A stretch of 41,118 nt of DNA from an uncultured bacterium (GCA_902796515.1 CADBOZ010000111.1:1-41118), one strand, 5' to 3'. Counted from the stretch's first letter, positions 5,133-10,374 are shown. Numbers and translations are program-made. Notes: a model not told the origin generated them from the sequence alone.

Positions 5133-5453
5133 TTCATAATTATATTCTAAATTTCATTTTTGTATTGTTAAGATTTGTTAACAAATTATTAAATAAAAAG
5201 CAATATTTAAAGAGAAAAATACTTTATTAAATTGTGGGATTACATACTACTTAACGAACACGATTTAAAACATAAATAAATCAAGACGTTAAAGGGTAAG
5301 ATTCCGCAAGGGTTAAATTTTATAGGGGAATATGATGATTTACTTAAATTATTTTTAAGAATATCTGATTATGTGTGTGGTAAAAGCTTTGCTGAAATAG
5401 CTTAAAATTTCAGAAAATGTGGTAGTTATAAAAAATTATAAGGTGTGTGTATT
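5133..5453. other. Intergenic region and long 5' leader before the first MGW gene
   Basis: This gap holds the probable dNMP-kinase promoter (TATAAT on the minus strand near 5142-5147), the three-block promoter of the first MGW gene (5166-5238) and a predicted leader of about 218 nt. The leader contains the hairpin CTGAAAT/ATTTCAG (5392-5398 with 5407-5413) and a start-less open frame (5280-5405, see findings). No complete gene is seen. Confidence 0.6.
5166..5244 (+). promoter_or_regulatory. Three-block promoter of MGW gene 1
   Basis: Blocks are TGTTAAG (5166-5172) repeated 10 bp on as TGTTAAC (5176-5182), GCAATATTTAA (5200-5210) and a -10-like TATTAA (5225-5230) followed by GGGATTACA (5236-5244). 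The same blocks at the same spacing precede the other two MGW genes. The -35 region is poor, so the tandem repeat may be an activator site of response-regulator type. The function is inferred. Confidence 0.6.
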
Positions 5454-7112
5454 ATGGGTTGGATTACTCTTACTGCAAGAGACATGAGCAATAGTGTTAT
5501 GCAAAACGAATATAATCTTGAATTATTTCGTATTGCAAACAGAAGAGAACGTCTTAAAAGCGAAGAATCTTTAAGATTAAGAAAGCTTCAAAACGAACAA
5601 GATGAAGCTATAAAAAACAACTATGCGCACATTAAATACGACGAAGCAAAAAAAGCTCTTGATGAAGCTAAAAAAACAACTAATGTTGCAGCCGCTGCCG
5701 AAGAAAAAACTAATCCGTTTGATGATATTAAAGAATTCAGCTATGAAGAAGCATCTAACTTAGGATTACTAAATAAAACACAAAATGCCGCTTATAATAT
5801 GGTTAAAAAATATGCAGATACAAGCAGATGCACACAGGTATATAATTCTGAAAGTAAAGAACTTACCATAACAACTGAAAAAGGTATAAACTACACAATT
5901 TCAGACGAAGGCACAATAACAGTTGATATACCTGAATATTCCGTAGATAACGAAAAATATGAAGCAGTAAGCTTTGAAATGACTTCTCCCTTAAAAGCAA
6001 TGGAACAAGGTGTTAAAGTTAATTATAAATCCATAATGGACACATTAGAAACTGCAAACAGCATTGATATGGGTCCTAATTCTAATTACAATGTTACTCA
6101 ACAACAAAAAGAAGTTTTAAAAAACGGCGGACTAAATTTAAACAATAATTCAGATGTATACTTATACAACAACACAATAGTTGTAAAAGGTAAATATGAC
6201 GATTATTGCGTAATTGATGCAAACGGTAATGTAGGCCGTTTTGATGCTAACGGTATGATGATGCAAATTGTTCACTACGGTATAGGCGGATGCTGCGAAG
6301 GTACATCTACCAGAACAAGGGAATTTGATGCACACGGCGTAAGCCAACCAAGACAAGCAAGCGATTTTTGCACATACGAAGATGCTAAAAAAACCAATAA
6401 ACTTACTCAAGAACAACAACAGGCATACAAAAAAGTACAAAACAGTATATCTAACTTTAATAAAAATACCGTAACAAGATTTGATAAAAACAGCGGTAAT
6501 ATAACAATTAACTGCAAGGACGGCACAGTTCACGTTATTGATAAAGAAGGTAATGACACAATCACTCTTTCTGGCGATATAACATATACAAGAACTTGTG
6601 ACGGCAAAAATCAATTTGGCGGACTTGACTTAGGTGAATTTGTTAACAGTTTGTCAAATGCTCAACTTAAAGAATTAGTTGAAATGACGGGCGTTGATGA
6701 TGCAGATACATTATTGGTATATGCTAAATATCCTACAATGGGTAAAATTGATGAATTAAAAGGTGCATTATTCTTTATAGATGAATCCGGCAATGCAACT
6801 ATAATAAAATCCGACAACACAATAGTTACAATAGAAAAAAATAATACGGAAAGCGAACAAAAACAGCAAATTACAAAAGCCGAAAGCGAATTAAAAAATG
6901 CAGAATGCGACTGGCAAAATGAACAATTGATTATAAACAGAACTTATGCTGATTTTCAGGATGATATAGAATCCGAAATCACGGATGAAGAAAATATGCT
7001 TGCACGCGAACAAGCAAACATAGAACATATTTTACAACAATTAAGTGCTGAAAGCGAAACATTAAACAGTAATATCCCGACAGCAATTCAAAAATCAACA
7101 ATATTTGCTTAA
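5454..7112 (+). CDS. MGW family coiled-coil protein 1 (552 aa, unrecognised)
   Basis: I do not recognise this family. The start is ATG 5454 rather than the in-frame GTG 5445, because the protein then begins MGWITLTARDM like its two neighbours (MGWVTL). Residues 1-75 are a charged amphipathic helix and residues 465-552 a second one (ESELKNAECDWQNEQL, DEENMLAREQANIEHILQQL). The ends resemble the shorter paralogues but are more divergent. Between them lies a beta-rich centre with two similar units: about 95-159 (FSYEEASNLGLLNKTQNAAY, then LTITTEKGINYTISDEGTITV) and about 305-375 (CTYEDAKKTNKLTQEQQQAY, then ITINCKDGTVHVIDKEG). Weaker copies may be present at 235-262 and 437-461. There is no signal peptide or membrane span. 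A weak AAGG lies 10 nt before the start. Self-assembly through the terminal helices with a displayed central domain is inference. Confidence 0.75.
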   Translation: MGWITLTARDMSNSVMQNEYNLELFRIANRRERLKSEESLRLRKLQNEQDEAIKNNYAHIKYDEAKKALDEAKKTTNVAAAAEEKTNPFDDIKEFSYEEASNLGLLNKTQNAAYNMVKKYADTSRCTQVYNSESKELTITTEKGINYTISDEGTITVDIPEYSVDNEKYEAVSFEMTSPLKAMEQGVKVNYKSIMDTLETANSIDMGPNSNYNVTQQQKEVLKNGGLNLNNNSDVYLYNNTIVVKGKYDDYCVIDANGNVGRFDANGMMMQIVHYGIGGCCEGTSTRTREFDAHGVSQPRQASDFCTYEDAKKTNKLTQEQQQAYKKVQNSISNFNKNTVTRFDKNSGNITINCKDGTVHVIDKEGNDTITLSGDITYTRTCDGKNQFGGLDLGEFVNSLSNAQLKELVEMTGVDDADTLLVYAKYPTMGKIDELKGALFFIDESGNATIIKSDNTIVTIEKNNTESEQKQQITKAESELKNAECDWQNEQLIINRTYADFQDDIESEITDEENMLAREQANIEHILQQLSAESETLNSNIPTAIQKSTIFA

Positions 7113-7134
7113 TAGCGGATAAATACAGATAAAA

Positions 7135-7213
7135 TGTTAAGTTTTGTTAAGTAAATTATAAAAATTGCGCAATTTTTAAAGCGCAATTTTTTTTATTATG
7201 GTGTGGGATTACA
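7135..7213 (+). promoter_or_regulatory. Three-block promoter of MGW gene 2
   Basis: TGTTAAG (7135-7141) and TGTTAAG (7145-7151) are 10 bp apart. GCAATTTTTAA is at 7169-7179, TATTAT at 7194-7199, and GGGATTACATACTACTTAAC starts at 7205. The last block is identical to the one before gene 1, and all distances from the first TGTTAAG (34 and 70 nt) match exactly. Confidence 0.62.
7161..7194 (+). terminator. Terminator of MGW gene 1
   Basis: A 10-bp stem AAAATTGCGC/GCGCAATTTT (7161-7170 with 7181-7190), a 10-nt loop and a following T run form an intrinsic terminator 48 nt after the stop codon. It overlaps the promoter of the next gene. Confidence 0.8.
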
Positions 7214-7381
7214 TACTACTTAACGGAAAAACTTTAAAACATTTACTCTTAATTATTTACTTCTCAAATTAAAACCTAAAATTAACAAGGTATGGTTTTA
7301 ATATAAGTCCGAATTAAAGAAACGTTAACTGGTGTAGACACAGGGAAATAGGGTTAATATTATTAGAAAAGAGGACACACT

Positions 7382-8221
7382 ATGGGTTGGGTTACATTAA
7401 ACTTGCGCAAAATGGATGATCAGGTTTTGCACAACAATTTTCAGGCACAATTACTTGAAATTTCAAGAAGACGTCAACAGGTAGCACGTAACAAAGGTTT
7501 GCAATCGTTATTAATAAATAATGAAAGAAAAACTATGTTATCCGATGCAAAAGTTGATAAGGAAAATAAATACAAAGAATATCAGGAAGCATACGACAAG
7601 TATACAAAACTGAAAAAAGCATACGACAAAGCAAAAAGCAATTCGCAAACATACAAAAATAAAGCAAACGATAAATATTCTAAAGTCATAACAGATGAAA
7701 ACTTTAATCCGGTATTAAAGGATGGCAAACCGCAAGAACTTGAATCTGCATATAAAGACAAAGACGGAAATTATTATAAAGAAAATAATAGTGAAGGAAC
7801 GTATGAAGCAGCACAAACAGGTTATTGGCTCGGAGATAATTACAAGGTAGTTGATGATAAAAACATACTTACCGACGTAAATTACTATAAAGACGGCGAT
7901 AATGACCCCGCGCTTGTATTAAGTGAAAGTCAGTTAGAAGCGCTAAAAGCTCAGGTTGATGCTGCGGAAGGTGAAAAAACACTGATTTACACCGAATATA
8001 ACGAAGAAGTAACAAGATACGAAGAAAATAAGAAAAACTTAAACGACGATTTTGATATGCAGCAACAAACATTAGAAGAAGAAACAACAACGGAAGAAAA
8101 CAGTATCGATTTAGAGCAAACGCAAATTGAAACACAATTAGAATCGTTCACTCAAGAACTTCAAGCGGTTAAACAACAAGTAAGTCAAGATATGCAAAAT
8201 GTTGTTATAAAACTCGGATAA
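7382..8221 (+). CDS. MGW family coiled-coil protein 2 (279 aa, unrecognised)
   Basis: This is the second paralogue, with GAGG before the ATG. The first 50 residues (MGWVTLNLRKMDDQVLHNNF onward) match paralogue 3 at 35 of 50 positions by my count, and the last 65 at about 44 of 65, ending IKLG in both. The middle (about residues 85-185) is unrelated to either neighbour: a hydrophilic, Tyr/Asp/Lys-rich segment with GYWLGDNYKVVDD and YYKDGDNDPALVL. Residues 55-85 and 185-270 are heptad-like and probably coiled coil. There is no signal peptide, membrane span or known domain. The gene is preceded by its own promoter and followed by its own terminator, so it forms a single-gene unit. Confidence 0.75.
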   Translation: MGWVTLNLRKMDDQVLHNNFQAQLLEISRRRQQVARNKGLQSLLINNERKTMLSDAKVDKENKYKEYQEAYDKYTKLKKAYDKAKSNSQTYKNKANDKYSKVITDENFNPVLKDGKPQELESAYKDKDGNYYKENNSEGTYEAAQTGYWLGDNYKVVDDKNILTDVNYYKDGDNDPALVLSESQLEALKAQVDAAEGEKTLIYTEYNEEVTRYEENKKNLNDDFDMQQQTLEEETTTEENSIDLEQTQIETQLESFTQELQAVKQQVSQDMQNVVIKLG

Positions 8222-8239
8222 AAAATATAGTTAACTTTT

Positions 8240-8275
8240 CAGATACAAGGTCACCGCCTTGTATCTGATATAAAA
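8240..8275 (+). terminator. Terminator of MGW gene 2
   Basis: A perfect 11-bp stem CAGATACAAGG/CCTTGTATCTG (8240-8250 with 8257-8267) encloses the loop TCACCG, 18 nt after the stop codon. A weak A/T tail follows. The same core and loop recur in the terminator of MGW gene 3. Confidence 0.75.
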
Positions 8276-8310
8276 AAATTTCCTTTCATATTAGGTGTTT
8301 TCAGGTGAAT

Positions 8311-8390
8311 TGTTAAGTTTTGCAAAGTAATTTAATCAAAACAGGCAATTTTAACCTGAAATTTTTCTTTATTATAATGTAGGGATTACA
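8311..8390 (+). promoter_or_regulatory. Three-block promoter of MGW gene 3
   Basis: TGTTAAG (8311-8317) and the degenerate TGCAAAG (8321-8327) are 10 bp apart. GCAATTTTAA follows at 8345-8354, exactly 34 nt from the first block as in the other copies. TATTATAAT (8370-8378) is followed by GGGATTACA from 8382 (71 nt). Confidence 0.6.
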
Positions 8391-8551
8391 AAAAACAAAC
8401 GGGAAACAACAAGGGATAAAAAGGTTTATTTAATTTTTTCGGGGATTAGATTAAACAATAGGGAACAAAAAACACACTGCTTATTCAGCGTTTAACGTAA
8501 TTTTTGTAAACACTAAAAGGGTTACATTATTATTAAGAAAGAGGGCACACT

Positions 8552-9181
8552 ATGGGATGGGTTACTTTGAGTTTACGCAGAATGGAAGATCAGGTTCTGC
8601 ACAACAATTTGCAACTTGAATTATTAGGAATTTCAAGACAAAGACAGCAACTTGCAAGACACAAACAGTATGAGTCACTTATGATTAACAATCAAAGAAA
8701 AGCTGAAATTAAAGCTGCAAAAAGCGGTAAAGACAGCGCTTACCAAACGTATTTGGATCTTCAAAAAGAATATAGCGCACTAAAAGGATTAGAATCAGCA
8801 AATAAAGCCAAAACTGATGCTGAAAATTCGGGAGTTACCGGTACCGATTTGAATAAATACAAAAAAGCGATAGAAATTGCTGAAAGCAAAACAGCAGGTT
8901 CTAAACATCAGGATTCAAACTCTGCAAAAACCGAACTTGAAACAGCACAGCTGGAATACAGCAATCAATCTACCGAATATGAAGAAACAAAGATGAACAT
9001 AAATGATATGTACGATCAGCAATTACAAGATTTAGAAGAAGAAACTACCATGGAAGAAAACTTCCTCGATATGCGCCAAACGGAAATAGAAGCACAACTG
9101 GAAGCAATTACTCAGGAACTCCAGGCAGTAAAACAACAAGTAAGCACAGATATCCAAAATTCAACAATAAAATTAGGATAG
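8552..9181 (+). CDS. MGW family coiled-coil protein 3 (209 aa, unrecognised)
   Basis: This is the shortest paralogue and probably closest to the minimal form of the family. It has an N-terminal conserved block (residues 1-50, MGWVTLSLRRMEDQVLHNN), a short Ala/Lys/Ser-rich linker (about 55-140) and the conserved C-terminal coiled coil (145-209, with LEEETTMEEN and ITQELQAVKQQVS) ending IKLG. AAGAGGGCACACT lies before the ATG. It lacks any signal peptide, Cys residue or known catalytic motif. The pattern of constant ends with a variable centre recalls filament subunits such as flagellins, but I see no flagellin sequence signature, so that is only an analogy. Confidence 0.75.
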   Translation: MGWVTLSLRRMEDQVLHNNLQLELLGISRQRQQLARHKQYESLMINNQRKAEIKAAKSGKDSAYQTYLDLQKEYSALKGLESANKAKTDAENSGVTGTDLNKYKKAIEIAESKTAGSKHQDSNSAKTELETAQLEYSNQSTEYEETKMNINDMYDQQLQDLEEETTMEENFLDMRQTEIEAQLEAITQELQAVKQQVSTDIQNSTIKLG

Positions 9182-9230
9182 ATAAGCTAAGATTATGTAA
9201 CCATCAAACTCTTAATAATAGTGAAAATTA

Positions 9231-9262
9231 CAATGCAAGGTCACCGCCTTGCATTGTTTTTA
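9231..9262. terminator. Bidirectional terminator between MGW gene 3 and yidC
   Basis: A perfect 10-bp stem CAATGCAAGG/CCTTGCATTG (9231-9240 with 9247-9256) has loop TCACCG and T5 downstream. It can serve the plus-strand gene 3 and, less well, the minus-strand yidC. Core and loop (CAAGGTCACCGCCTTG) are identical to the gene 2 terminator. Confidence 0.8.
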
Positions 9263-9267
9263 TATAT

Positions 9268-10374
9268 TTATTTTTTATCTTTGTTTTCTATAACTTCGGC
9301 ATTAATTACTTTGGTATCAACTATTCCTGCAGCTTCATCTTTTTGTTTTTGTTTTATATTTTCTTCAATCAAAAGCTGTTTATTAATAATTACCGTTTGT
9401 GCTATTTGGAAAATATTGCTTGTAACAAGGTACAATAAAGCACCTGCAGGAATTGGTATAAACACAAAAGTAATAATAATCATAATCGGCATTATTCTGC
9501 CCATAGATTTTTGCATGGCAGCTTGAGTCGGGTCTTGATTTTTGCTTTGAGTTGTTGCCATCATAACTTTTTGAGAAAGCCAGATTGTAACACCAAACAG
9601 AGCAACAAGTAATATTACATCCCAATGCACATCTTCTTTAACGGGAACGGTAGGATAAGAAACGGTTAGAATATCACCGTTACGCTCAAATGTAACGTTT
9701 TCCGTTTCCTTGGTCATTATGTTCATAACCGAAACTTCGGCTTTTTGAACTTTGTTTAACTGTTCAAATTTTAAGTTCAAACTGTCAAGACCCATTTTAA
9801 GGTCTATTGGCTGATTTTCGGTAATATCACCCTGAATTACAATTGCCTTTTGCGGTTTTTCAATTTTAACATTATCAATAACATTATCCGTTAAATAAAC
9901 TTTTGCGGTTTTTCCGGACTGGAATTGAGCATTCTTACTAACCGAGAATTTACCGTCCAGAGAAACACCCGCATTTGATTTAATTGTTGAATCAAGTCTG
10001 TTTATAAAGAGAAAATGAGTATTGCCTGCCATTTGAATAAACTGGGGACTCATAAGAGCGCTATATAGCATAATGAACACGGGAATTTGAATTAACATAG
10101 GCAAGCATCCCGCCATGGGGTTAAAATTATGCTCTTTATAAAATTCCATCATTTTCTGCTGCATTAATTGAGGATTATTTTTATATTTTTCCTGTATCAT
10201 TTTCATTTTAGGACCCAGGTTCTGCATATTTTTCATTGAACGCTGCTGGGTAACATTAATCGGCCATAGGCAAAGTCGCATGATAATTGTAAAAATTATA
10301 ATTGCCATACCGTAACTTCCGACAATAGCTGCGAGTTTACCTAATATTTCTATAGTCAGTACAACGAAGTCCAT
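9268..10374 (-). CDS. yidC: YidC/Oxa1-type membrane protein insertase
   Basis: YidC inserts and folds inner-membrane proteins, alone or with SecYEG. The 368-residue protein has a hydrophobic N-terminal segment, TM1 with the conserved groove Arg (IIMRLCLWPI, R33), the cytoplasmic helical hairpin (about 42-85), TM2 PMLIQIPVFIMLYSAL (92-107), and three C-terminal segments (about 254-270, 293-308, 309-330). Between TM2 and the third segment is an extracytoplasmic insertion of about 120 residues (128-250) that short Gram-positive homologues lack. It carries no large N-terminal P1 domain. GAGGAG lies just upstream of the ATG. It is divergent from mnmE, a neighbour it has in many bacteria. Confidence 0.93.
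   Translation of the reverse strand: MDFVVLTIEILGKLAAIVGSYGMAIIIFTIIMRLCLWPINVTQQRSMKNMQNLGPKMKMIQEKYKNNPQLMQQKMMEFYKEHNFNPMAGCLPMLIQIPVFIMLYSALMSPQFIQMAGNTHFLFINRLDSTIKSNAGVSLDGKFSVSKNAQFQSGKTAKVYLTDNVIDNVKIEKPQKAIVIQGDITENQPIDLKMGLDSLNLKFEQLNKVQKAEVSVMNIMTKETENVTFERNGDILTVSYPTVPVKEDVHWDVILLVALFGVTIWLSQKVMMATTQSKNQDPTQAAMQKSMGRIMPIMIIITFVFIPIPAGALLYLVTSNIFQIAQTVIINKQLLIEENIKQKQKDEAAGIVDTKVINAEVIENKDKK

What the first reader, a model, noticed from the sequence alone, without database searches (positions are those of the whole stretch)
5454..9181. Three tandem MGW genes: constant ends, unrelated centres
Three consecutive genes encode proteins starting MGW(I/V)TL and ending in a Glu/Gln-rich coiled coil. 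Paralogues 2 and 3 match at about 35/50 N-terminal and 44/65 C-terminal residues by eye, while their centres (and the 400-residue centre of paralogue 1) do not align. There are no signal peptides, membrane spans or known domains. Conserved helical ends with a swapped, displayed centre is the layout of self-assembling filament subunits (flagellin, hook and type III filament proteins) or of a diversifying surface or bait protein. I recognise no described family. This is my best candidate for an undescribed system.
Basis: partly seen in the sequence, partly recalled or inferred. Interest (0 to 1): 0.72.

Follow-up and report, generated by a model that had tools for sequence, protein, structure and literature searches.

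The report
Hairpin proteins with hypervariable centres
Three neighbouring genes belong to a large undescribed family of rod-like hairpin proteins, found only in a group of mostly gut-dwelling non-photosynthetic cyanobacterial relatives, whose two ends stay constant while the middle changes fast; they are probably exported by, and displayed on, a little-studied flagellum-like secretion machine.

Summary
Paralogues 2 and 3 match at 35/50 N-terminal and 44/65 C-terminal residues. The three genes belong to an undescribed superfamily: about 150 members were read here, 95 to 531 aa long, in Candidatus Gastranaerophilales and sister families. The shortest members (about 96 aa) are just the N-end joined to the C-end; longer ones carry an insert. 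AlphaFold gives paralogue 3 as one long helical hairpin (pLDDT 92.8). Against the nearest relative, the ends of paralogues 2 and 3 are 85-91% identical while their centres are 46-47% identical with large indels; two other syntenic slots repeat this. No Pfam, NCBIfam, PHROG or PDB relative was found. Every genome with the family carries a second flagellar-type type III secretion system, without recognisable FliG; at least 15 such genomes have no flagellin. Superfamily genes lie beside flagellin, FliF1 or second-system operons in several genomes, and share a promoter-like motif (29/47 versus 8/596 other genes). Best reading: signal-less subunits exported by type III secretion and displayed or polymerised outside, with a diversifying centre. 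Export and polymerisation are inferred, not shown. The second system also occurs in lineages where this family was not detected, which limits the inference.

The parts
5454..7112 (+). MGW paralogue 1, 552 aa: helical ends (2-74 and 464-551) around a ~390-residue alpha/beta centre that holds a repeated module
   Evidence: ORF; AlphaFold (pLDDT 73.6); internal repeat Z=5.9; syntenic MAW orthologue L088:2947-4542
7382..8221 (+). MGW paralogue 2, 279 aa
   Evidence: ORF; orthologue L088:4817-5665, ends 91/89% identical, centre 47%
8552..9181 (+). MGW paralogue 3, 209 aa; predicted single long helical hairpin H2-92 / H122-208
   Evidence: ORF; AlphaFold (pLDDT 92.8); orthologue L088:6001-6492, ends 85/88%, centre 46% with 48 gap columns
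5168..5180 (+). promoter-like box TTAAGATTTGTTA (2 mismatches to TTAAGTTTTGTAA)
7137..7149 (+). promoter-like box TTAAGTTTTGTTA (1 mismatch)
   Evidence: box (<=1 mismatch) upstream of 29/47 superfamily genes versus 8/596 other genes
8313..8325 (+). promoter-like box TTAAGTTTTGCAA (1 mismatch)
5234..5256 (+). repeated leader element GTGGGATTACATACTACTTAACG, also at 7203-7225; GGGATTACA at 8382-8390
   Evidence: sequence; same element upstream of the L088 orthologues
8239..8268 (+). terminator-like hairpin after paralogue 2
   Evidence: fold
9230..9257 (+). terminator-like hairpin followed by T-run after paralogue 3, same TCACCG loop
   Evidence: fold

Best explanation
The three genes encode variable-centre subunits of a lineage-wide superfamily of signal-less helical-hairpin proteins. 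The N- and C-terminal helices are the constant export and assembly module. The centre is a fast-evolving insert that sits at the tip of the hairpin. The proteins are most likely exported by flagellar-type type III secretion, most likely the second system that these bacteria keep even when they lose flagellin, and then displayed or polymerised on the cell surface, so that the variable centre faces the host or other microbes. Shown: family membership, hairpin prediction, constant ends with diversifying centre, lineage distribution, neighbourhood and shared upstream motif. Inferred: export route, surface location and assembly.
For: (1) Hairpin: paralogue 3 pLDDT 92.8, helices 2-92 and 122-208, with the variable part at the turn. 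(2) Compact 95-111 aa relatives are just N-end plus C-end, with optional insert between; separate MGL-only and MGW-only profiles find each other's C-modules (44/77 and 39/53 members at E<=1e-3), the N-modules only weakly (6/77, 0/53); hhalign E=1.9e-5 on the C-module. (3) Ends fixed, centre fast: window versus L088; syntenic slots B and C, ends 0.85-0.90, centres 0.46 and 0.43, neighbour genes 0.74-0.89. (4) Two flagellar-type systems in most of 21 relatives. G010 lost flagellin and all three system-1 markers but keeps system 2 and the family; 14 other 99%-complete genomes have no flagellin and no FlhA1, keep FlhA2, and give 16-27 family matches. No genome seen with the family lacks FlhA2. (5) Neighbours: a member lies directly beside the system-2 operon (L228), the FliF1 operon (L227) and flagellin (L149, own genome); a member pair lies 6-11 kb from FlhA2 in ten genomes. 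(6) Shared upstream box, 29/47 versus 8/596. (7) Above-average codon adaptation, 88th-97th percentile, like flagellin.
Against: No secretion or localisation data exist. Generic coiled coils match the predicted fold just as well, and sequence profiles find no type III needle, tip or flagellin relative. The window locus itself has no secretion genes beside it. The FlhA tree puts class families f10-f12 in the system-2 clade, but the superfamily was not detected there, so the family is not an obligate part of system 2. Presence of the family may be only one ancestral event, so co-occurrence statistics are weak, and the 6-11 kb synteny is inherited and interrupted by housekeeping genes.
Confidence: 0.45

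Rival explanations
1. Cytosolic coiled-coil scaffold or chaperone-like proteins, unrelated to secretion; the centre varies because it is a loosely constrained linker.
For: No signal peptide; acidic coiled coil; generic coiled-coil structural hits; weak prefoldin-like matches; the window locus sits among housekeeping genes.
Against: Multiplication to about 16-27 profile matches per genome in small genomes; a folded alpha/beta centre in paralogue 1 rather than a linker; repeated adjacency to flagellar or secretion operons.
Confidence: 0.27
2. Type III-secreted effectors, tip or translocator proteins delivered to host or neighbour cells rather than structural subunits.
For: Scattered multi-copy genes with constant N-termini and variable bodies; a conserved Gly-rich companion with a hydrophobic double stretch directly downstream of a member; the companion's C-end matches the MGL C-module profile at E=5e-6.
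Against: Both ends, not only the N-end, are conserved; compact 96-aa members have no room for an effector domain; the companion was not seen in the own-genome stretches read.
Confidence: 0.15
3. Subunits or accessory proteins of the ordinary flagellum of these bacteria.
For: Members beside flagellin (L149) and the FliF1 operon (L227).
Against: Retained in G010 and in 14 other genomes without flagellin or FlhA1; absent from flagellin-bearing family f10.
Confidence: 0.06
4. ESAT-6/WXG100-like hairpins exported by a type VII-like system.
For: About 100-aa helical hairpins without signal, multi-copy; sub-threshold Pfam matches to WXG100 and EspC.
Against: No WXG turn motif; matches in only 1-2 of 26 members; the presence of a type VII ATPase was not tested.
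Confidence: 0.05

Closest known systems
Bacterial flagellin (Flagellin_N PF00669 with a C-terminal partner)
   Same: Conserved helical N- and C-ends, hypervariable centre, no signal peptide, multi-gene, high codon adaptation
   Different: No sequence match; conserved ends only about 50 aa each; persists in genomes with no flagellin
Type III secretion needle/filament/tip proteins (SctF, EspA, SipD/IpaD)
   Same: Small helical hairpin, both ends conserved; adjacent to a flagellar-type secretion operon in some genomes
   Different: No significant profile match (SipD C-end at E=0.4 among noise); copy number far higher; long inserts
WXG100/ESAT-6 proteins
   Same: About 100-aa helical hairpins, multi-copy, no signal peptide
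   Different: No WXG motif at the turn; conserved residues are at the two termini; no curated match

Membership tests
MGL/MGW hairpin superfamily (defined here) | N-module (MGx..., about 50 aa) and C-module (..L..E...iE.q..a...E...v...i...i...s, about 48 aa) both present | tested here: met
   Paralogue 3: N 3e-19, C 3e-21; paralogue 1's C-module 2e-9 (local HMMs); reciprocal MGW/MGL profiles strong for C, weak for N
MGL/MGW hairpin superfamily (defined here) | Ends conserved, centre variable between orthologues | tested here: met
   slot A (155 aa, short centre) shows it only mildly (0.72 versus 0.81-0.90)
Flagellin | Flagellin_N domain | tested here: not met
   No Pfam or NCBIfam match for the three proteins or other members
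Type III needle/filament/tip proteins | Sequence match to a known needle, EspA or tip family | tested here: not met
   nothing significant
Type III needle/filament/tip proteins | Helical hairpin fold with packed N- and C-helices | tested here: inconclusive
   Paralogue 3 is a helical hairpin, but the PDB matches are generic coiled coils
Type III-secreted substrate | Export by a flagellar or injectisome apparatus | not testable with these tools
   Only neighbourhood and distribution evidence
WXG100/ESAT-6 | WXG motif at the hairpin turn | tested here: not met
   Alignments A3, A5 and A6 show none; the conserved W is residue 3
Phage structural proteins | Homologues in phage families or viral contigs | tested here: not met
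   PHROGs no significant match; two viral-contig scans found no relative

The most novel reading that the evidence does not exclude
The second flagellar-type system, spread across much of the class Vampirovibrionia and previously read as a partial or decaying flagellum, is a functional non-rotary secretion machine, and the MGL/MGW superfamily is its own class of surface-polymer subunit: a hairpin with an interchangeable, diversifying insert that replaced flagellin and needle proteins.
Probability: 0.25. Interest if true: 0.85.

Novelty: new variant of a known kind. Interest (0 to 1): 0.6.

Why it matters
Gastranaerophilales are widespread, uncultured animal-gut relatives of cyanobacteria whose interaction with hosts is almost unknown. 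An undescribed, multi-copy, probably exposed protein family with constant ends and fast-changing centres would be a first candidate for their surface or secreted interface. It would also give a purpose to flagellar genes that earlier papers read as an incomplete flagellum (PMC3787301, PMC4040986).

Tried and rejected
Known families: Pfam, NCBIfam, PHROGs and PDB sequence profiles gave nothing significant. Structure comparison: only generic coiled coils; no needle or flagellin fold stood out, which excludes nothing. Phage origin: no viral relatives. Ordinary flagellar role: rejected because the family persists without flagellin. Perfect co-occurrence with system 2: my first reading (FlhA2 in exactly the same 27 genomes) was wrong; the FlhA tree shows that f10-f12 also have system-2-type FlhA without detected family members. 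A 317-aa gene in the second system that I first called FliG by position has no FliG match. dN/dS of the centres is saturated (dS over 1.4), so positive selection could not be tested; only higher dN is shown. A literature search found no description of this family or of a type III system in these bacteria in the open papers held.

Full report
What is there. The window (contig C111 of a 1.85 Mb draft genome, 91% complete) carries three consecutive + strand genes at 5454-7112, 7382-8221 and 8552-9181. Each is preceded by a long intergenic stretch, and the second and third end in terminator-like hairpins, so they look like separate transcription units. Paralogue 1 is clearly related at the N-end and more weakly at the C-end.

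Family. A search with paralogue 3 found relatives in all 13 genomes of the genus examined, often in tandem. A profile reached other genera of the family, and named records place the hits in Candidatus Gastranaerophilales and other gut cyanobacterial relatives. Weak hits led to a larger superfamily with N-termini such as MGLAASQARFLxLTARKSDLE and a matching C-end. Local HMMs of the two ends collected 154 distinct sequences, some of them truncated at locus edges, of 95-531 aa with a wide score gap to everything else. The shortest are the two ends joined directly. Because those HMMs were seeded with both groups, I repeated the test with each group alone: the C-modules find each other reciprocally, the N-modules only weakly, and hhalign agrees for the C-module (E=1.9e-5). 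So the MGW genes are a branch of this superfamily; the N-end relation is less sure than the C-end relation.

Constant ends, changing centre. The closest locus (L088, RUG14156 MAG) has the same gene order and all three genes. Ends of paralogues 2 and 3 are 85-91% identical, centres 46-47%, with 48 gap columns in paralogue 3. Paralogue 1 shows the same trend less strongly (71/54% ends, 39% centre). Most flanking genes are 74-95% identical; one more distant neighbour is 33%. In six other genomes, syntenic slots B and C show ends 0.85-0.90 and centres 0.46 and 0.43; slot A, with a short centre, is more even.

Shape. AlphaFold gives paralogue 3 as a long helical hairpin with pLDDT 92.8. Paralogue 1 has helical ends around alpha/beta modules, two of which are detectable repeats; this model is weaker (pLDDT 73.6). 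PDB comparison returns only generic coiled coils.

Secretion context. Most of the 21 relatives examined carry two FlhA, two FliP and two FliF genes. The second system has FliE, a divergent FliF, FliH, FliI, rod proteins and a transglycosylase, but the gene in FliG's place has no FliG match. A tree of FlhA splits into two old clades. Genome G010 lacks flagellin and every system-1 marker searched but keeps the second system and the family; so do 14 further 99%-complete genomes, judged by FlhA and flagellin. Earlier papers describe such genomes as having only a subset of flagellar genes (PMC4040986) or as lacking filament, cap and junction (PMC3787301). Superfamily genes lie immediately beside the second-system operon in L228, beside the FliF1 operon in L227, beside flagellin in the window's own genome (L149) and about 1 kb from FlhB2 (L151). 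In ten genomes of sister genera a member pair lies 6-11 kb from FlhA2. Members share the upstream box TTAAGTTTTGTAA: 29 of 47 versus 8 of 596 other genes at one mismatch or fewer; the three window genes carry it with 2, 1 and 1 mismatches. Codon usage is above average (small reference set).

Interpretation and limits. Together these fit signal-less proteins exported through a flagellar-type gate and displayed with a variable tip. Steps shown: family, hairpin prediction, divergence pattern, distribution, neighbourhood and shared motif. Steps inferred: export, surface position, assembly. The main weakness is that system-2-type FlhA also occurs in class families where the superfamily was not detected, so the link is not obligate, and presence of the family may be one ancestral event. 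A cytosolic role remains a serious rival.

Verdict. A real, undescribed and lineage-specific protein superfamily with unusual evolution; mechanism plausible but unproven.

Noticed in passing
L228:12040-18655; L048; L056; L219: Second flagellar-type type III secretion system in all genomes of the genus examined and, judged by FlhA, through much of the class; rod proteins and FliE present, no recognisable FliG, FliF below the flagellar cut-off. FlhA forms an old separate clade.
   Followed up: partly
L041:10997-12448 (own genome contig C10): A protein that matches only the C-terminal part of FlhA/SctV (FHIPEP positions 321-656), without the membrane part, present in nearly all relatives; next to FliJ/FliK/FlgD/FlgE-like genes in L055.
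   Followed up: partly
L241:4585-5403; L250:5524-6432; L255:5295-6167; also L137, L138, L165, L171, L184: Undescribed 272-302 aa Gly-rich companion (MSYKND...) with a hydrophobic double stretch, directly downstream of a superfamily member; its C-end weakly resembles the family's C-module. Translocator-like by anatomy.
   Followed up: partly
L190-L214: Exact TTAAGTTTTGTAA boxes also precede several tiny proteins (54-68 aa, some Ser/Thr/Asn-rich), a 146-aa gene beside a MAW gene (L042:6094-6534) and other unknown genes: a possible regulon.
   Followed up: partly
window 5234-5256, 7203-7225, 8382-8390: Repeated leader element GTGGGATTACATACTACTTAACG upstream of the genes, also in L088 but not in other genus members; role unknown.
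   Followed up: partly
L045:8483-8956 and 9215-9688: Two MGW genes with identical proteins in tandem (genome G008): a very recent duplication or an assembly copy.
   Followed up: no
L043:6319-6855; L044; L046; L050; L053: An EF-hand protein gene lies beside one MGW slot in several genomes (EF-hand E=2e-11).
   Followed up: no
L053:2519; L044:3439; L187:14164; L226:14065: Many otherwise unrelated proteins in these genomes share a short N-terminal stretch like (I/V/L)(N/S/T)F(x)G; possibly a sorting or secretion signal.
   Followed up: no
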